In this document: positions 5,214 to 14,288 of the stretch, in pieces
How the letters are laid out: each line of letters starts with the position of its first letter
Numbering within the stretch: position 1 is the first letter of the stretch
Assembly (NCBI GenBank): GCA_903892515.1
Contig: CAITIS010000087.1
Span: forward strand, 16,233 to 80,232
DNA from: an uncultured Planctomycetota bacterium
GTDB taxonomy: Bacteria; Planctomycetota; Phycisphaerae; SM23-33
Length of the DNA stretch: 64,000 nucleotides
Direction: 5' to 3'
Program-made: the position numbers and the translations under genes
The notes under the pieces: model-generated
What the model was told of the DNA's origin: nothing
Databases searched by the model: none
The model's input: only the letters and a program-made list of their open reading frames with translations

Positions 5214-5747
5214 ATGATTCGGGAGAATAACGGCTGTCACTGTCAGCAGGCGTCGGAGCAGGAGTTGATGGCCCGGCTGGATGAGGTGCTCGAGCAGTAC
5301 AAGCACAAGCCCGGGGCGTTGATTCCCGTCTTGCAGATGGCGCAGGGCATCTTCGGGTATCTCCCCGAGGTGGCCATGAAGCGGATCGCGCTGGTGCTAA
5401 GCAAGAGCTACAGCGAGGTGGCCGGGGTGGTAAGCTTCTACTCCTTCTTCTCCACGATCCCGCGCGGCCAGCACCTGGTGCGCGTTTGCCTGGGCACGGC
5501 CTGCTACGTTCGCGGCGGCGCGCGGGTGCTCGAGGCGATCAAGCAGCACCTGGGCGTGGACGTGGGCCAGACGACCCCCGACAAGATGTTCACACTGGAA
5601 GTCGCCCGCTGCTTTGGCGCGTGCGGGCTGGCGCCGGTTATAACCATCGATGACGACGTGCATCATCGCGTCAAGGCCAATCGCGTCGAGGATGTGCTGG
5701 CCAAGTACCGCGAGCAGGAGCACGAGCCTGCCAGGAGGAAGCCCTAA
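5214..5747 (+). CDS. hydC: NADH-linked [FeFe] hydrogenase, NuoE-like [2Fe-2S] subunit
   Basis: A 177-residue NuoE/HndA-type thioredoxin-fold protein carrying one [2Fe-2S] cluster in a soluble multimeric hydrogenase. The cluster ligands are visible as CLGTAC (Cys92, Cys97) and CFGAC (Cys133, Cys137). The N-terminal helical bundle with GYLPEVAMKRIA is typical of the family. It is the first gene of hydC-hydB-hydA; its stop is two bases from the hydB start. In related complexes this subunit docks on the NuoF-like subunit and relays electrons to or from FMN. Complex I NuoE is ruled out by the neighbouring HydA. Confidence 0.93.
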   Translation: MIRENNGCHCQQASEQELMARLDEVLEQYKHKPGALIPVLQMAQGIFGYLPEVAMKRIALVLSKSYSEVAGVVSFYSFFSTIPRGQHLVRVCLGTACYVRGGARVLEAIKQHLGVDVGQTTPDKMFTLEVARCFGACGLAPVITIDDDVHHRVKANRVEDVLAKYREQEHEPARRKP

Positions 5748-5749
5748 TC

Positions 5750-8700
5750 ATGGCAAAGATCAATTCCATCCAAGACCTCAACGCCCTGAAGCAGTCGGCC
5801 CTTGAACAGATCGGCCTGCGCGTCGGCCAGGCGGCGCCGGCCACGGCGGAATTCGGCGCTCCCAACGTTCGCAAGCACCTGTTGGTGTGTACCGGCGGCG
5901 GGTGTATCGCCTCGGGCGCGCTGGACATTCGCGACGCCTTGCGCGACAGCCTGGATAAGCATGGCCTGTCGCGCGAGTGCAAGGTCATCGAGACCGGCTG
6001 CCTTGGCCCCTGTGCAATTGGGCCGGTGGTGGCGGTGTACCCTGAGGGCGTGCTGTACCAGGGCGTGACCCCCGAGGACGCCCCCGAGATCGTCGCCCAG
6101 CACATCGCCCGCGACCAGGTGGTCGAGCGGCTGGTGACCAAGCGGCCTGACGGCACGATTCCGACGCTGAATGAACTCAACTTCCTGCGGCGGCAGGTCA
6201 AGGTCGTGCTGCGTAACTGCGGCCTGATCGACCCGCAGAACATCGACGAGTACATCGCCCGCGACGGCTACCAGGGCTTGGCCAAGGTTCTGGGCGGCCT
6301 GACGCCCGAGCACGTGATCGATGAAGTGAAGAAGGCCGGCCTGCGTGGCCGAGGCGGCGCGGGCTTCTTGACGGGCACGAAGTGGGCCCTGACGCGTCGG
6401 GCCAAGGGCGACCAGAAGTACGTCCTGTGCAACGGCGACGAGGGCGACCCCGGCGCGTTCATGGATCGCAGCGTTTTGGAAGGCGACCCGCACACGGTGG
6501 TCGAGGGCATGGCCATCGCCGCCTACGCCATCGGCGCCAGCCAGGGCTACGCGTACATCCGGGCCGAATATCCGCTGGCGGTGGAGCGGTTCGAGCGGGC
6601 ATTGCAGCAGGCGCGCGAGTCGGGCCTGCTGGGCCAGAACATCATGGGCAGCGGTTTTAGCTTCGACATCGAAGTCCGCATGGGCTCCGGGGCGTTTGTG
6701 TGCGGCGAAGAAACCGCGCTGATGACCTCCATCGAGGGCCATCGCGGCGAGCCGCGCCCGCGTCCGCCGTTCCCGGCCAATAAGGGCCTGTGGGACAAAC
6801 CCAGCAGTCTGAATAACGTCGAGACTTTCGCCAACGTGCCGCCCATCATGGTCAACGGCTCGGCTTGGTTTGCGGGCATGGGCACGGAAAAGAGCAAGGG
6901 CACGAAGGTATTTGCCCTCGCCGGCGCGGTCAACAACACCGGCCTGGTCGAGGTGCCCATTGGTATGCCCTTGGGCGAGATCATCTACGACATCGGCGGG
7001 GGCATTCCCAACGGCAAGCGTTTCAAAGCCGCCCAGATCGGCGGGCCTTCGGGCGGGTGCATCCCCAAGGAGCACCTGAACGTGCCGGTGGATTACGAAT
7101 CGCTGACCGAACTGGGCGCGATCATGGGCTCGGGCGGGCTGATCGTGATGGACGAGGACACGTGCATGGTGGACGTGGCCCGGTTCTTCCTGGATTTTGT
7201 ACAGGACGAATCATGCGGCAAGTGCCCGCCCTGTCGCGTCGGCACAAAGCGAATGCTCGAGATCGTCACGCGAATCTGCGAGGGCAAGGGCGTCGAGGGC
7301 GACGTCGAGCGGCTGCTCGACCTGGGCCAGAAGATCAAGGACACAGCCTTGTGCGGCCTGGGGCAGACGGCGCCCAACCCGGTGCTCTCTACGATCCGCT
7401 ACTTCCGCAACGAGTACGACGCCCACATTCGCGACAAGCACTGCCCGGCCGGCGTGTGCCCGTCGCTGGTGAAAGCGCCGTGCTCCAACGCCTGCCCAGC
7501 CAACGTGAATATCCCGGGCTTTGTGTCGCTGATCGGCGAGAAGCGTTACGCCGAGGCCCTGCAATTGCATCGCGAGCGGAACCCGTTCGCGTCGGTGTGT
7601 GCCCGCGTGTGCTTCCACACGTGCGAGGACAAGTGCCGCCGGGCCACGCTGGACGAGCCGCTCTCGATCCGCGGCCTAAAGCGGTTCATGGCCGAGCAGG
7701 AAGTCACGGTGCAACTGCCTGACGTGATCGAGAACGAAGCCAATGCCAGGCGGAAGATCGCCATTGTCGGGGCCGGGCCGTCGGGGCTGTCGTGCGCGTA
7801 TTTCCTGGCCCGGCTGGGGTATCAGCCGAAGGTATTTGAAGCCGAGCCGCGTCCTGGCGGCATGCTCATGCAGGCGATTCCGGCCTACCGGCTGCCGCGC
7901 GAGGAACTGGCGCGCGAAGTGCGAATGATCGAGCGGCTGGGCGTGGACATCGAGACCAACACGCGGTTGGGACGCGATTTCACGCTGCAAGGGCTCAAGC
8001 ACGAAGGCTACGAAGCGGTGTTTGTGGGCGTGGGTGCGCCGCTGGGCACGACGCTGGGGATTCCCGGCGAGGACTCCATCGGCGTGACCGAGGCCTTGCG
8101 GTTCCTGCGTGATTACAACATTCGCGGCAGCGTGCCGATCGGCGAGGACGTGGTTGTGATCGGCGGCGGCAATGCCGCCATCGACGCCGCCCGCACCGCC
8201 ATCCGGCTGGGCGCCAAGACGGTGACCATTCTGTACCGCCGCACGCGGGCGGAGATGCCCGCCTACCAGGAAGAAGTGGAAGAGGCCGAACACGAGGGCG
8301 TGCAGATCGACGTGCTGGTGGCGCCGGTGGAGATTCTGTCTGAGCATGGCCGCGTTGTGGGCGTCAAGTGCAAGAATATGATCCTGGGCGAGTTCGACCG
8401 CAGCGGCCGGCGGCGGCCCGTGGAAGGCAGCAGCAGCGAGTTCACGATCAAGGCCGACCAGGTCATCTCCGGCATCGGTCAGCGGCTCGACGCCAAGGGC
8501 GTGTTGGACGTGGCCTTGCGGCTCAAACGCAACGGCTTCATCGATGTCGATCCGACGACGATGCAGACCTCCGAGCCGTGGATCTTCGCCGGCGGCGACG
8601 CGGTGCTGGGACCGGCCTCGGTGGTTGAGGCGATAGCGGCAGGCGAGAAGGCGGCCGTCGGAATCGATCAGCACCTGACCGGTGCGGCCCATGCGTTCTG

Positions 8701-8905
8701 GCGTGGCGAGAAGACTGTGGACACCTTCTTCGATCCCGACGCCGACCCGGTGACGTATGTCCGGGCGCGGATGCAATTGCTGCCGGTCAAGAAGCGCAAG
8801 AATAACTTCCAGGAAGTGGAGCTGCCGTGGTCGGACCACGTGGCTCGCCGCGAGGCCGCCCGGTGCCTGCGCTGCGATTTCGGAAAAGACTGCAAGAAGC
8901 ATTAG
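5750..8905 (+). CDS. hydB: HydB (NuoF-like) flavoprotein fused to a GltD/NfnB-like FAD-NAD(P)H oxidoreductase
   Basis: 1051 residues, about 1.7 times a normal HydB. Residues 40-120 are a thioredoxin-like [2Fe-2S] domain (Cys47, 52, 84, 88). Residues 170-480 are the NuoF FMN/NADH domain (GLRGRGGAGF at 197-206, CNGDEGDPGAF at 227-237). Cys489, 492, 495 and 535 bind a [4Fe-4S] cluster. At 565-570 CPAGVC marks where ordinary HydB continues into a two-cluster ferredoxin domain. Here it continues instead into a GltD/DPYD-like module: a cysteine-rich helical domain (Cys578, 582, 617, 621, 625, 629), an FAD Rossmann motif GAGPSG (674-679), a second dinucleotide motif GGGNAA (805-810) and FAGGDAV (946-952). 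A last CLRC-x5-C (1039-1048) may hold another cluster. The reading frame is continuous. The expected role is coupling H2 to NAD(H), with probable added NADP(H) or ferredoxin exchange. Confidence 0.93.
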   Translation: MAKINSIQDLNALKQSALEQIGLRVGQAAPATAEFGAPNVRKHLLVCTGGGCIASGALDIRDALRDSLDKHGLSRECKVIETGCLGPCAIGPVVAVYPEGVLYQGVTPEDAPEIVAQHIARDQVVERLVTKRPDGTIPTLNELNFLRRQVKVVLRNCGLIDPQNIDEYIARDGYQGLAKVLGGLTPEHVIDEVKKAGLRGRGGAGFLTGTKWALTRRAKGDQKYVLCNGDEGDPGAFMDRSVLEGDPHTVVEGMAIAAYAIGASQGYAYIRAEYPLAVERFERALQQARESGLLGQNIMGSGFSFDIEVRMGSGAFVCGEETALMTSIEGHRGEPRPRPPFPANKGLWDKPSSLNNVETFANVPPIMVNGSAWFAGMGTEKSKGTKVFALAGAVNNTGLVEVPIGMPLGEIIYDIGGGIPNGKRFKAAQIGGPSGGCIPKEHLNVPVDYESLTELGAIMGSGGLIVMDEDTCMVDVARFFLDFVQDESCGKCPPCRVGTKRMLEIVTRICEGKGVEGDVERLLDLGQKIKDTALCGLGQTAPNPVLSTIRYFRNEYDAHIRDKHCPAGVCPSLVKAPCSNACPANVNIPGFVSLIGEKRYAEALQLHRERNPFASVCARVCFHTCEDKCRRATLDEPLSIRGLKRFMAEQEVTVQLPDVIENEANARRKIAIVGAGPSGLSCAYFLARLGYQPKVFEAEPRPGGMLMQAIPAYRLPREELAREVRMIERLGVDIETNTRLGRDFTLQGLKHEGYEAVFVGVGAPLGTTLGIPGEDSIGVTEALRFLRDYNIRGSVPIGEDVVVIGGGNAAIDAARTAIRLGAKTVTILYRRTRAEMPAYQEEVEEAEHEGVQIDVLVAPVEILSEHGRVVGVKCKNMILGEFDRSGRRRPVEGSSSEFTIKADQVISGIGQRLDAKGVLDVALRLKRNGFIDVDPTTMQTSEPWIFAGGDAVLGPASVVEAIAAGEKAAVGIDQHLTGAAHAFWRGEKTVDTFFDPDADPVTYVRARMQLLPVKKRKNNFQEVELPWSDHVARREAARCLRCDFGKDCKKH

Positions 8906-8917
8906 AGGGTTTGAAAT

Positions 8918-10690
8918 ATGCCCACACTGACCATAGACAACATCCCCGTGACCGTCAGCGACGGTGCGACGATTCTCGATGCCGCCAAGGCGGCCGGCGT
9001 GCGCGTGCCGACCCTGTGCTTCCTCAAGGACGTGCAGGCCATCGGCGCCTGCCGCGTCTGCCTGGTGGAGGTGGAAGGGGCCAAGACGCTGGTGGCCTCC
9101 TGCGCCATGCCGGCCGGCGAGGGCATGAAAGTAAAGACCAACACCGCGAGGGTGCGCGACTCGCGCCGGATGGTCGTCGAATTGCTGCTCTCTGAGCACG
9201 ACGGCGACTGCCAGACCTGCAACCGCAGCGAGGATTGCGAACTGCAAGCCTTGGCACGCGAACTGGGCATTACGGATGTCAAGCTCACCGGCGAGCGCGC
9301 CGAACGGTCCAAGGACTTTTCCACGCCAGCACTGACGCGCGACACGGCCAAGTGCGTACTGTGCCGGCGCTGCGTAACCGTCTGCTCGCAGGTGCAGGGC
9401 GTCTCGGCCCTGTTCCCGCAGCGGCGCGGCTTCAAGACCGTCATCGGCCCGGCCTTCTGCGGCCAGCTTAGCGAGGTCGTGTGCGTGCAGTGCGGCCAGT
9501 GCGGCGCGGTCTGTCCGGTCGGGGCCATTTCGGAGCGAGACCAGATCGATGATGTCTGGAAGGCGCTGGAGGATCCGACCAAGCACGTGGTCGTGCAGAC
9601 GGCCCCGGCCATCCGGGCGGCCCTGGGCGAGTGCTTCGGCATGGACCCCGGCACGCTGGTGACGGGCAAGATGGTCTCGGCCTTGCGCCGGCTGGGCTTT
9701 GACGCCATCTTCGACACCAACTTCACGGCCGATCTGACCATCATCGAGGAAGGCACCGAGCTGCTGATGCGACTCAAGGCGGCGCTGGTGGAGAAGAAGC
9801 CCGTGGCCTTGCCGATGTTCACGAGCTGTTCGCCGGGCTGGATCAAGTTCATGGAGCATTATTACCCGGACATGCTGGACAACCTTTCCACGTGCAAGAG
9901 CCCGCAGCAGATGTTCGGGGCCGTGGCCAAGAGCTACTACGCCCAGAAGATCGGCAAGCGGCCCAAGGACATTTTCGTGGTCTCCGCCATGCCGTGCACG
10001 GCCAAGAAGTACGAGGCCCAGCGGCCCGAGATGGCCACCGACGGCGTGCCCGACGTGGACGTGGTGCTGACGACGCGCGAGCTGGGGCGGATGATCAAGC
10101 AGGCCGGCATCGATTTTACGTCGCTGCCAGACGGCGAGATGGACAGCCCGATGGGCATGTCCAGCGGTGCGGCCGACATCTTCGCCAACACCGGCGGAGT
10201 GATGGAAGCGGCGTTGCGCACGGCGTACGAACTGGTGACCGGGCGCGAGCTGCCATTTGAGAACCTGCACGTGGCGCCGGTGGTGGGGCTCGAAGGCATC
10301 AAGGCGGCCTCAGTGACCATCACAGACACGCTGCCGGAGTGGAAGTTCCTGGACGGCGTGACGCTGAAGATCGCCGTGGCCCACACGCTGGCCAACGCGC
10401 GGCGGGTGATCGAGCAGATCCGCAGCGGCCAGCTCGAACTGCACTTCATCGAAGTTATGACATGCCCGGGCGGCTGCATCGGCGGCGGCGGGCAACCCAG
10501 GATGACGACCAACGAGGTGCGGCAGTCGCGAATCAACGCGATCTATCGTGAGGACGAGGGCAAGAAACTCCGCAAGAGCCACGAGAACCCGTGGATCAAG
10601 CAGATCTACCAGGAGTTTCTCATCGAGCCTCTGGGCGAGAAGAGCCACCATCTCCTGCACACCCACTACCAAAAGCGGGAGAAGGTGTAA
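8918..10690 (+). CDS. hydA: [FeFe] hydrogenase catalytic subunit HydA (multimeric NAD(P)-linked type)
   Basis: 590 residues; the catalytic subunit that makes or oxidises H2. Domains in order: a plant-type [2Fe-2S] ferredoxin (Cys34, 45, 48, 62), the His-Cys box of the NuoG family (His94, Cys98, 101, 107), two [4Fe-4S] clusters (Cys146/149/152/156 and 189/192/195/199) and the H-domain. The H-cluster signatures are TSCSPGW (Cys304), MPCTAKKYEA (Cys360) and EVMTCPGGCIGGGGQP (Cys516, Cys520). The first signature has Ser305 where many hydrogenases have the proton-relay Cys. The gene follows hydB by 12 bases with GAGGG upstream. No maturases (HydE, F, G) are in the window, so they must lie elsewhere. 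Confidence 0.96.
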   Translation: MPTLTIDNIPVTVSDGATILDAAKAAGVRVPTLCFLKDVQAIGACRVCLVEVEGAKTLVASCAMPAGEGMKVKTNTARVRDSRRMVVELLLSEHDGDCQTCNRSEDCELQALARELGITDVKLTGERAERSKDFSTPALTRDTAKCVLCRRCVTVCSQVQGVSALFPQRRGFKTVIGPAFCGQLSEVVCVQCGQCGAVCPVGAISERDQIDDVWKALEDPTKHVVVQTAPAIRAALGECFGMDPGTLVTGKMVSALRRLGFDAIFDTNFTADLTIIEEGTELLMRLKAALVEKKPVALPMFTSCSPGWIKFMEHYYPDMLDNLSTCKSPQQMFGAVAKSYYAQKIGKRPKDIFVVSAMPCTAKKYEAQRPEMATDGVPDVDVVLTTRELGRMIKQAGIDFTSLPDGEMDSPMGMSSGAADIFANTGGVMEAALRTAYELVTGRELPFENLHVAPVVGLEGIKAASVTITDTLPEWKFLDGVTLKIAVAHTLANARRVIEQIRSGQLELHFIEVMTCPGGCIGGGGQPRMTTNEVRQSRINAIYREDEGKKLRKSHENPWIKQIYQEFLIEPLGEKSHHLLHTHYQKREKV

Positions 10691-10896: not shown

Positions 10897-11286
10897 ATGC
10901 GCGGGAAAATCCTGGTCGTGGATGACGATGCGGACTTCCGCATGCAGCTCCGGCTGCAATTGCGCCATGCCGGTTTTGACGTGGTTTTGGCTGAGAGTAT
11001 CGAAGAGGCGCTGGAAGTTTTCGAGGAAGCCCAGCCCGACCTGGCCATCGTCGATTGCATGATGCAAAACGCCGACGACGGCTTGGTGCTCTGTCACATT
11101 CTCAAGGGGCTTCGGCCTCGCCTGCCAATTATCATGGTCACGTCGGTCACGCAGAAGACCCGCATCGACTTGGGTGCCGTCACCGACGAGGAGCGCGCGT
11201 GGGTCAAAGCCGATCTGCTTATGCACAAGCCGGTCCGGCTTGAAGCCCTCAAGAGCGAGATCGACCGCCTGCTCCCCAGCGTGTAA
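10897..11286 (+). CDS. Single-domain response regulator next to hydABC
   Basis: 129 residues consisting of one receiver domain. The acidic pocket (Asp9-Asp11), phospho-acceptor Asp53 (IVDCMM), Thr82 (VTSVTQKT) and Lys111 (HKPV) are all present, so phosphorylation is expected. No output domain follows. The stretch between Thr82 and Lys111 is several residues longer than in CheY-like receivers and contains a charged DEERAWVKAD helix. AGGAG precedes the ATG. It lies 206 bases after hydA on the same strand, and stand-alone receivers next to NAD-linked [FeFe] hydrogenase genes occur elsewhere. A role in adjusting hydrogenase activity or expression is inferred. No cognate kinase is adjacent. Confidence 0.88.
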   Translation: MRGKILVVDDDADFRMQLRLQLRHAGFDVVLAESIEEALEVFEEAQPDLAIVDCMMQNADDGLVLCHILKGLRPRLPIIMVTSVTQKTRIDLGAVTDEERAWVKADLLMHKPVRLEALKSEIDRLLPSV

Positions 11287-13544: not shown

Positions 13545-13595
13545 ATGTGGTTAGCCAGTGAGGAAGCGTCGGGAACAACCCTAAAGGAGCGGATC

Positions 13596-14288
13596 ATGGC
13601 TGCGAAGAATGGGCAGTTTCTGCTTGGGCTTGTGGCCATATGCGTGTTGGCCTGTTCGGCAGGGGCGTCGCAGGCCGTTTTGAACCCATCGACCACCACC
13701 GTAGATGACGCAGGCTTTGGCTATCCCTACAATCTCAACTACGGCAGCGAGAGCAGCATGTCTGGCAATTGTCTGCTGGGCTATCAGAACATGTTCACGA
13801 TGGTGCCGCCGACCTCGGCTGGCCAGAGCATCGTGATCGATTCGGCCAGTCTGAAGCTCTACGCCAGTATCGATGCGACGGTCGATGTCTACCGCGTCAT
13901 CACTCCCTGGCTATCGCTGACGCCGGCCGGCCAAGCTCAGTTCAATGTCGGCGGCACATACCGCGATATGGCCAATCAACTGAAGTGGACGAATGACCCC
14001 GGCAGCAGCCTGTGCTTCGGAGCGAGTGACTACTCGGCGTCCGACCATGCGGTGGGAATGACCAGCCCCGAGTATAACGGCTCGGCAGTTTTTGATGTGA
14101 CGCCCGTCGTCGCGGGCATCTTTGCCTCCGGCGTGAACGAGGGCATGATGTTGTACAGCACCGCCTATATTCGCACGCAGGAATCGGGCATGGCCGAAGA
14201 ACTGACGATCAACTATCACTACACCCCCGAGCCGGCCACGATGTCGCTGCTGGTTCTGGGCGGGCTGGGCCTGCTGCGGCGGCGGTAA
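13596..14288 (+). CDS. PEP-CTERM secreted protein, DNRLRE-like beta domain
   Basis: 230 residues. A signal peptide (LLGLVAICVLACSAGASQA) leads to a beta-rich mature domain with a DNRLRE-like pattern: a polar start, SLKLYASIDATVDVYRV, then FDVTPVVAGIFASGVNEGMML. The last 21 residues are a PEP-CTERM sorting tail: PEPATMSLLVLGGLGLLRRR. Such tails direct cleavage by an exosortase and surface or matrix release; no exosortase is in the window. AAAGGAG precedes the ATG at 13596. The protein is probably an extracellular or cell-surface component. Confidence 0.85.
   Translation: MAAKNGQFLLGLVAICVLACSAGASQAVLNPSTTTVDDAGFGYPYNLNYGSESSMSGNCLLGYQNMFTMVPPTSAGQSIVIDSASLKLYASIDATVDVYRVITPWLSLTPAGQAQFNVGGTYRDMANQLKWTNDPGSSLCFGASDYSASDHAVGMTSPEYNGSAVFDVTPVVAGIFASGVNEGMMLYSTAYIRTQESGMAEELTINYHYTPEPATMSLLVLGGLGLLRRR

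What the first reader, a model, noticed from the sequence alone, without database searches (positions are those of the whole stretch)
5750..8905. HydB fused to a GltD/NfnB-like FAD-NAD(P)H module inside an [FeFe] hydrogenase operon
Seen: one continuous frame where ordinary HydB (2Fe-2S, FMN/NADH, 4Fe-4S) switches at CPAGVC (565-570) to a cysteine-rich domain, FAD motif GAGPSG and second dinucleotide motif GGGNAA, in place of the usual two-cluster ferredoxin domain, plus an added C-terminal CLRC-x5-C. Known: HydB is the NADH/flavin subunit of bifurcating hydrogenases, and NfnB is the NADPH subunit of NADH-dependent ferredoxin:NADP oxidoreductase. Inference: the complex may connect H2, NADH and NADPH (and ferredoxin) in one enzyme, merging hydrogenase and transhydrogenase functions. 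Related fusions may already sit in databases.
Basis: partly seen in the sequence, partly recalled or inferred. Interest (0 to 1): 0.72.

Follow-up and report, generated by a model that had tools for sequence, protein, structure and literature searches.

The report
Hydrogenase subunit fused to NADPH module
A bacterial hydrogen enzyme has, in place of the part that normally docks ferredoxin, a flavin domain that likely handles NADPH, so it would share electrons from hydrogen between NAD and NADP; the same fused subunit is also encoded beside formate dehydrogenase genes in other bacteria.

Summary
Window 5750-8905 is one frame (1051 aa): a HydB core joined to an NfnB/GltD-like FAD-NAD(P) domain, between hydC and an [FeFe]-hydrogenase hydA. 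It is no artefact: 68 of 80 fetched genome loci carry the fusion, 52 complete (22 named phyla by record title). The architecture is already in print as 'sub-type I BfuB' of Hydrogenedentota (PMC11406978), without biochemistry in the parts seen.

Added here. (1) The B2 site reported as diagnostic of bifurcating HydB, histidine included, is kept; GltD cluster ligands start 8 residues after it, where the ferredoxin domain should be. (2) The C-terminal CLRC tail is the displaced N-terminal cluster motif of NfnB (circular permutation), both Cys in 77 of 77. (3) The FAD-side cluster has the StnC lysine, not the NfnB glutamate. (4) The fused gene also lies beside formate dehydrogenase (10 of 58 complete cases) or a glutamate-synthase-like gene (4), so it is an exchangeable HydBC-type module.

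Most likely function (inferred): bifurcation between NAD(H) and NADP(H), NADP replacing ferredoxin on the low-potential branch. No assay is known to me.

The parts
5214..5747 (+). HydC (NuoE-like, [2Fe-2S] C1), 177 aa
   Evidence: Pfam 2Fe-2S_thioredx E 6.9e-49; a HydC upstream of 53 of 58 complete fusions by the ORF rule, 56 of 58 when overlapping genes are added (L047 and L057 have none)
5750..8905 (+). HydB-GltD fusion, 1051 aa
   Evidence: single frame; domains; AlphaFold model pLDDT 90.7, pTM 0.88
5861..6100 (+). thioredoxin-like [2Fe-2S] domain (B5), residues 38-117; C47 C52 C84 C88
   Evidence: Pfam; Cys in 73, 72, 77 and 77 of 77
6326..7426 (+). FMN/NADH domain, SLBB and 4Fe-4S (B1; C489 C492 C495 C535), residues 193-559
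   Evidence: Pfam; B1 Cys 77 of 77
7442..7459 (+). CPAGVC, residues 565-570: two ligands of the B2 [2Fe-2S] site (with C472, C510, H559)
   Evidence: aligned to A. mobile C531 and C536 (ligands from PMC9304861); C472, H559, C565, C570 77 of 77, C510 52 Cys and 18 Thr of 77
7457..7705 (+). DPD_II (Fer4_20) part of the GltD module, residues 570-652: C578 C582 C621 C625 C629 K644
   Evidence: Pfam, model positions 24-109 of 113; all six 77 of 77
7754..8644 (+). FAD and NAD(P) Rossmann domains, residues 669-965; GAGPSG 674-679, GGGNAA 805-810, YRR 829-831
   Evidence: Pfam Pyr_redox_2 E 8e-31; R830 77 of 77, R831 76 of 77
8795..8896 (+). permuted N-terminal segment of the DPD_II domain, residues 1016-1049, with CLRC 1039-1042
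   Evidence: on its own hits Fer4_20 model positions 1-33; 9 of 9 other fusion tails tried do the like; C1039 and C1042 77 of 77
8918..10690 (+). HydA, group A [FeFe] hydrogenase, 590 aa
   Evidence: NF040763 895.5 bits (cut-off 765), TIGR02512 527.4 (cut-off 405.95); TSCSPGW, MPCTAKK, EVMTCPGGCIGGGGQ

Best explanation
The 1051-residue protein is a HydB subunit whose ferredoxin-docking domain is replaced by an NfnB/GltD-like FAD domain, and together with HydC and the [FeFe] hydrogenase HydA it is predicted to form an electron-bifurcating hydrogenase in which NADP(H) likely takes the place of ferredoxin on the low-potential branch. Shown by sequence: an H-cluster site in HydA, FMN/NAD site, B1, B2 and B5 ligands, a HydC gene; the GltD cluster ligands follow B2 directly. 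Inferred: electrons from H2 reach FMN through HydA and B1; one goes to NAD+, the other by HydC C1, B2, the distal cluster (C578, C629, C1039, C1042), the proximal cluster (C582, C621, C625, K644) and FAD to NADP+. Two H2 would give one NADH and one NADPH; in reverse, NADH plus NADPH would make H2. The donor (H2, formate, perhaps a glutamate-synthase-like substrate) would be set by whichever A-type partner is bound.
Against: No assay, no structure of the complex; cluster ligation is by analogy. B2 alone may not prove bifurcation: this genome's HydB paralogue L003 has neither ferredoxin domain nor GltD yet keeps the His and both C-terminal Cys of B2. NADP+ is only modestly lower in potential than NAD+, so bifurcation gives a small gain. 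The C. autoethanogenum hydrogenase reduces NADP+ together with ferredoxin (PMC6288185), so NADP and ferredoxin are not exclusive in this class. C510 is Cys in only 52 of 77; C617 (76 of 77) has no assigned role.
Confidence: 0.48

Rival explanations
1. Unbifurcated H2:NAD(P)+ oxidoreductase with transhydrogenase activity: FMN and FAD are simply two outlets of one cluster wire, so NAD+ and NADP+ are reduced independently.
For: S. wolfei Hyd1, whose HydB lacks B3/B4, does not bifurcate (PMC11406978); S. aciditrophicus HydAB is non-bifurcating too (PMC7311640). A paralogue without ferredoxin domain keeps part of the B2 site (L003). Both NAD+ and NADP+ can be reduced by H2 at high H2 pressure without coupling.
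Against: The B2 histidine, reported as missing in non-bifurcating HydB, is invariant in 77 of 77 fusions; HydC is encoded upstream of 56 of 58 complete copies.
Confidence: 0.24
2. Two bifurcation centres: the FAD bifurcates as in NfnB and still reduces ferredoxin, next to the FMN-FeS centre (the reading raised by Zheng and Huang for sub-type I BfuB, who also leave open that neither or only one centre bifurcates).
For: The arginine equivalent to NfnB R201 is present (R714, 76 of 77 with one gap); published postulate (PMC11406978).
Against: The FAD-side cluster position is Lys as in StnC, whose FAD does not bifurcate, in 77 of 77, where NfnB has Glu; StnC also keeps that Arg. None of HydC, HydB-GltD and HydA is an NfnA. 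No ferredoxin-type Fer4 dicluster in the fused subunit.
Confidence: 0.13
3. Stn-like use: NADPH is a third donor that feeds FMN, and ferredoxin is reduced at some other site such as HydA, giving an H2/NADPH-driven NAD+ and ferredoxin reductase.
For: The GltD module is closest among solved structures to the StnC type (bits 407, 369, 354 against 286, 280, 265 for NfnB-type chains) and that module is an electron entry in Stn (PMC10482914).
Against: In Stn the module sits on the A-type subunit and StnB keeps its ferredoxin domain; here it sits after B2 and that domain is gone.
Confidence: 0.12

Closest known systems
Sub-type I BfuABC of Hydrogenedentota (Zheng and Huang 2024, PMC11406978)
   Same: Same architecture: DPD_II plus FAD/NAD(P) domain in place of B3/B4; the paper names Planctomycetota homologues that generally lack BfuD, as this locus does.
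   Different: The passages and sections read treat hydrogenase-linked copies only and postulate a possible second bifurcating FAD; I did not meet the circular permutation, the StnC-type lysine, or formate-dehydrogenase- or Glu_synthase-linked copies there (section 7 part 2 and the supplements were not read in full).
Stn / NfnABC transhydrogenase (S. ovata 8oh5, C. saccharolyticus 9bov/9bp5, T. sibiricus 9n5u/9n5v)
   Different: There the GltD module is on the A-type subunit and B keeps its ferredoxin domain; here it is on B, replaces that domain, and A is a hydrogenase.
Canonical HydABC (T. maritima, A. woodii, T. kivui)
   Same: HydC, HydB core with FMN, B1, B2 and a group A HydA.
   Different: B3/B4 ferredoxin domain absent here.
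NADP-specific hydrogenase/FDH complex of C. autoethanogenum (Hyt)
   Same: [FeFe] hydrogenase that reduces NADP+ in a coupled reaction.
   Different: Its second acceptor is ferredoxin (PMC6288185, passages); no GltD fusion is described in the passages read.
NfnAB (P. furiosus 5jca, T. maritima 4ylf)
   Same: GltD/NfnB fold, FAD, NADP(H) motif, two 4Fe-4S clusters.
   Different: NfnB has Glu, not Lys, at the FAD-side cluster, an N-terminal RCLQC in the usual order, and an NfnA partner.

Membership tests
Bfu family (Schut 2022) | BfuB with 51K, SLBB and NADH_4Fe-4S domains (IPR011538, IPR019554, IPR019575) | tested here: met
   Pfam equivalents found; the InterPro-Pfam pairing is recalled
Bfu family (Schut 2022) | BfuB with ferredoxin-type 4Fe-4S domain IPR017896 (B3/B4) | tested here: not met
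   no Fer4 dicluster model hits P0001 at E 1e-3, while paralogues L002, L004 and L005 hit several; tested with Pfam, not with InterPro's own profile
Bfu family (Schut 2022) | B2 site incl. conserved His, absent in non-bifurcating homologues | tested here: met
   C472, H559, C565, C570 77 of 77; C510 Cys 52, Thr 18 of 77
Bfu family (Schut 2022) | reversible bifurcation between NAD(H) and ferredoxin | not testable with these tools
   needs purified enzyme
Sub-type I BfuABC (Zheng and Huang 2024) | BfuB with DPD_II and C-terminal FAD/NAD(P) domain in place of B3/B4, with BfuA and BfuC genes adjacent | tested here: met
   paper. Placement in their tree was not tested
Group A [FeFe] hydrogenase | H-cluster motifs P1, P2, P3 in the A subunit | tested here: met
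   all three; TIGR02512 over its cut-off
HydDB group A2 (GltD-linked) | GltD-type domain but no NuoF in the protein downstream of the catalytic subunit | tested here: inconclusive
   the partner has both NuoF and GltD and lies upstream (rule)
Stn/NfnABC | GltD module on the NuoG-like subunit, B with ferredoxin domain | tested here: not met
   GltD on B; A carries the H-cluster
Stn/NfnABC | Lys at the FAD-proximal cluster (StnC K170) | tested here: met
   K644 77 of 77
NfnAB | Glu ligand at the FAD-proximal cluster, and an NfnA subunit | tested here: not met
   Lys in 77 of 77; neighbouring genes are HydC and HydA; the rest of the genome was not searched for NfnA

The most novel reading that the evidence does not exclude
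A ferredoxin-free class of electron-bifurcating enzymes exists across 22 or more phyla: a HydBC core whose ferredoxin exit was replaced by a circularly permuted NADPH module, splitting electrons from H2, formate or a glutamate-synthase-like partner between NAD and NADP, and so acting as a substrate-driven transhydrogenase.
Probability: 0.38. Interest if true: 0.82.

Novelty: new variant of a known kind. Interest (0 to 1): 0.57.

Why it matters
If right, NADP can stand in for ferredoxin as the low-potential partner of a HydBC-type bifurcating core. That would be a direct route from H2 or formate to NADPH in anaerobes at H2 pressures too low for simple NADP+ reduction, and a natural test of whether the core still bifurcates once the B3/B4 ferredoxin domain is gone but B2 is kept. 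It would also show that the acceptor end of the core can be exchanged, as the donor end is already known to be (PMC9304861). The architecture itself is not new (PMC11406978); the wider family, the permutation and the proposed role are what is added.

Tried and rejected
Independent third cluster in the C-terminal tail: rejected, only two of its three Cys are conserved. A separate, un-fused ancestor of the GltD module: (476-residue query) listed 120 of 7989 hits, many carrying NuoF-type domains or names and so pieces of the same fusion; I saw no clear un-fused relative but did not check each hit. Monophyly of the fusion: the HydB-core tree of 97 rows (71 fusion, 26 other; quick method) draws two fusion groups with non-fused rows L004 and L088 inside them; an AU test does not reject one origin (p 0.232, 69 against 22 rows; L006, L014 canonical, both L058 rows and two rows with cores of 450 residues or fewer left out; begun, finished). 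So neither one nor two origins is shown. Literature on Pelotomaculum or on an FDH-linked fusion: none in the listings, which were capped (8 of 52 shown); PMC5736913 describes a Chloroflexi FdhAB with a NuoF-like beta subunit but no GltD in the passages seen. Distances between clusters in the model could not be read, since coordinates are not returned. Rnf: best rnfC match under its cut-off (212 against 246 bits), left open. HydE was not searched.
Full report
Observation. The frame 5750-8905 encodes 1051 residues. Pfam places a HydB core (thioredoxin-like [2Fe-2S], FMN/NADH, SLBB, 4Fe-4S) in residues 38-559, then DPD_II (Fer4_20) 570-652 and Pyr_redox_2 669-965. Against solved structures, residues 41-576 match HydB and StnB-type chains and 575-1043 match the GltD part of NfnABC/StnABC A-type subunits. 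HydC lies directly upstream, HydA directly downstream with complete H-cluster motifs. HydF and HydG maturases are in the same genome, over their cut-offs; HydE was not searched.

Not an artefact. The best 120 of 7999 scored relatives, the query among them, are 980-1064 aa; the other 119 are 68-79% identical. A genome scan returned 80 loci; 68 carry the fusion, 52 complete, the rest cut by contig ends or, in L065, split between two frames. With the window and five relatives there are 74 fusion ORFs, 58 complete, in 22 phyla named by record titles, mostly of metagenome-assembled genomes; 9 records could not be placed. Of 40 genomes searched as relatives (own included) 33 have a HydB-type match at E 1e-150; 12 of the 39 others (G005, G006, G008, G009, G016, G021, G022, G024, G027, G031, G033, G036) have one reaching residue 1044 or beyond.

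What is kept. By alignment to A. mobile HydB, whose B2 ligands are C438, C476, H525, C531 and C536 (PMC9304861, passages), the window protein has C472, C510, H559, C565 and C570. In an alignment of 77 fusions (29 database proteins, the query among them, and 48 of the 52 complete loci; L015, L016, L020 and L022 left out) C472, H559, C565 and C570 are invariant and C510 is Cys in 52 and Thr in 18; Thr there is usual in FeFe enzymes according to that paper. The histidine is reported there as absent from non-bifurcating homologues. Against a simple reading: this genome's paralogue L003, which lacks both the ferredoxin domain and GltD, also keeps the His and the two C-terminal Cys.

What is replaced. 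The 4Fe-4S dicluster that follows B2 in canonical HydB is missing. This genome's other HydABC on contig C4 has it, and intact H-cluster motifs, so the organism has both kinds.

Circular permutation. Fer4_20 matches the internal domain only from model position 24. The last 48 residues alone match model positions 1-33 (E 1.6e-4); placed in front of the internal domain in silico the score rises from 71 to 94 bits and covers positions 1-109. Nine of nine tails from other fusions match positions within 1-36 (E 1.2e-5 to 0.034); the tail region of an HdrA-like protein, L007, matches only weakly (E 0.16). phmmer also aligned the tail to the N-termini of NfnB chains 4ylf_B and 5jca_L with low scores (7.7 and 7.6 bits). 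A stand-alone GltD of the same genome (L008) has the usual order, 1-112. The pattern R-[CSA]-L-x-C was found in the tail of 56 of 58 complete fusions; the other two, L039 and L046, are in the 77-row alignment, where both Cys are invariant. The tail is confidently modelled for residues 1001-1040 (pLDDT 92-95); the block 1041-1050, with C1042, averages 62 and 1047-1051 are below 50. Ligand count then closes: C578, C629, C1039, C1042 for the distal and C582, C621, C625, K644 for the proximal cluster, all 77 of 77. The pairing of ligands to clusters follows dihydropyrimidine dehydrogenase and is recalled. C617 is Cys in 76 of 77 and has no assigned role. Kremp et al. [quoted passage not shown] here only a first CxxC of that kind is kept.

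Which kind of GltD. K644 aligns with Lys in StnC and the two NfnABC A subunits and with Glu in NfnB. In StnC this lysine seems to ligate the FAD-side cluster and the FAD is called non-bifurcating (PMC10482914, section 8 and passages). StnC C114 corresponds to I588 (Val 47, Ile 24, Ala 6 of 77). GxGxxA was proposed as NADP(H)-type by Kremp et al.; two arginines that stabilise the 2'-phosphate are described for the NAD(P)-binding subunit of an archaeal FDH (PMC8965080, passages), and I equate them with R830 and R831 by motif, which one search aligns with the YRR of NfnB.

Partners (by gene neighbourhood). Among 58 complete fusions: 39 with [FeFe] hydrogenase by the ORF rule, plus L019 and L020 whose hydA overlaps, so 41; 10 formate dehydrogenase; 4 with a short NuoG-like protein and a Glu_synthase-domain protein; L012 ends at the contig edge; L047 and L058 have none of these. 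Seven of the ten FDH cases were checked with Pfam, at least in part (L034, L040, L042, L049, L051, L055, L070); L091-L093 rest on similarity to L034's gene. L034's partner exceeds the Fdh-alpha cut-off (901.9 against 666.25 bits). Four FDH genes have an in-frame TGA in the VDHCARL or VDNCARV context, as expected of selenocysteine. The Glu_synthase hits are modest (45 to 59 bits) and no NCBIfam model hits the two tried at E 1e-20.

Mechanism. Published models send the low-potential electron along C1-B2-B3-B4 to ferredoxin (PMC9304861, PMC11406978, passages). Here B2 is followed by the GltD clusters and FAD, so NADP+ is the likely end of that branch. With the potentials given in the papers read (NADH -280, NADPH about -370 to -380 mV; H2 -340 mV at 250 Pa; PMC9304861 and PMC6288185, passages), the mean of the two acceptors is about -330 mV, so H2 of the order of 100-200 Pa would be in balance; this is my estimate. 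It would let H2 reduce NADP+ where H2 alone could not. All of this is inference; I know of no activity measured on such an enzyme.

Prior art. PMC11406978 (abstract, passages, section 7 part 1, section 8) describes the architecture as sub-type I BfuB, with homologues in Planctomycetota and others, and postulates a possible extra bifurcating FAD. Searches (open-licence PMC papers only, no preprints, several listings capped) turned up no description of the permutation or of FDH- or Glu_synthase-linked copies. That is a statement about these searches only.

Verdict. A real, widespread variant of the HydABC/Bfu family whose function is untested as far as I found. It fails one published defining feature of that family (ferredoxin domain in BfuB) while keeping the others tested, so it would work like a Bfu enzyme but with NADP likely in ferredoxin's place.

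Noticed in passing
L050, L057, L066, L071: Fused HydB-GltD beside a short NuoG-like protein and a 525-546 aa protein with a Glu_synthase domain: perhaps a bifurcation-coupled glutamate-synthase-like enzyme.
   Followed up: partly
L032, L033, L041, L053: Between the fusion and hydA lies a second hydC-hydB pair; the second HydB (544-549 aa) is too short to hold a ferredoxin domain or GltD. Atribacteria and unclassified bacteria.
   Followed up: no
L058:3663-11109: Fusion followed by a NuoG-like protein, a second HydC-HydB pair and a protein with a glycine-cleavage H domain; catalytic partner unknown.
   Followed up: partly
relatives G015, G031 (C28), G036 (C71), G037: Matches that stop at residue 862 of the query inside open frames of 1083-1197 aa: perhaps another variant of the fused module.
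   Followed up: no
L003 (own genome, contig C141): HydB paralogue of 833 aa without ferredoxin domain or GltD that keeps the His and two Cys of the B2 site; partner not identified.
   Followed up: partly
L088:1088-2818: Pelotomaculum sp. HydB of 576 aa with neither ferredoxin domain nor GltD, placed inside a fusion group of the HydB tree: a possible loss of the module or a broken frame.
   Followed up: no
L007 (own genome, contig C45): 681 aa protein with DPD_II, FAD domain, Fer4 and FlpD: an HdrA/MvhD-like redox protein, its DPD_II match also starting late in the model (position 30).
   Followed up: partly
window 10897-11286: Stand-alone response-regulator receiver protein just downstream of hydA, same strand.
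   Followed up: no
window 13545-14288: Protein ending in a PEP-CTERM-like sorting signal (judged by eye).
   Followed up: no
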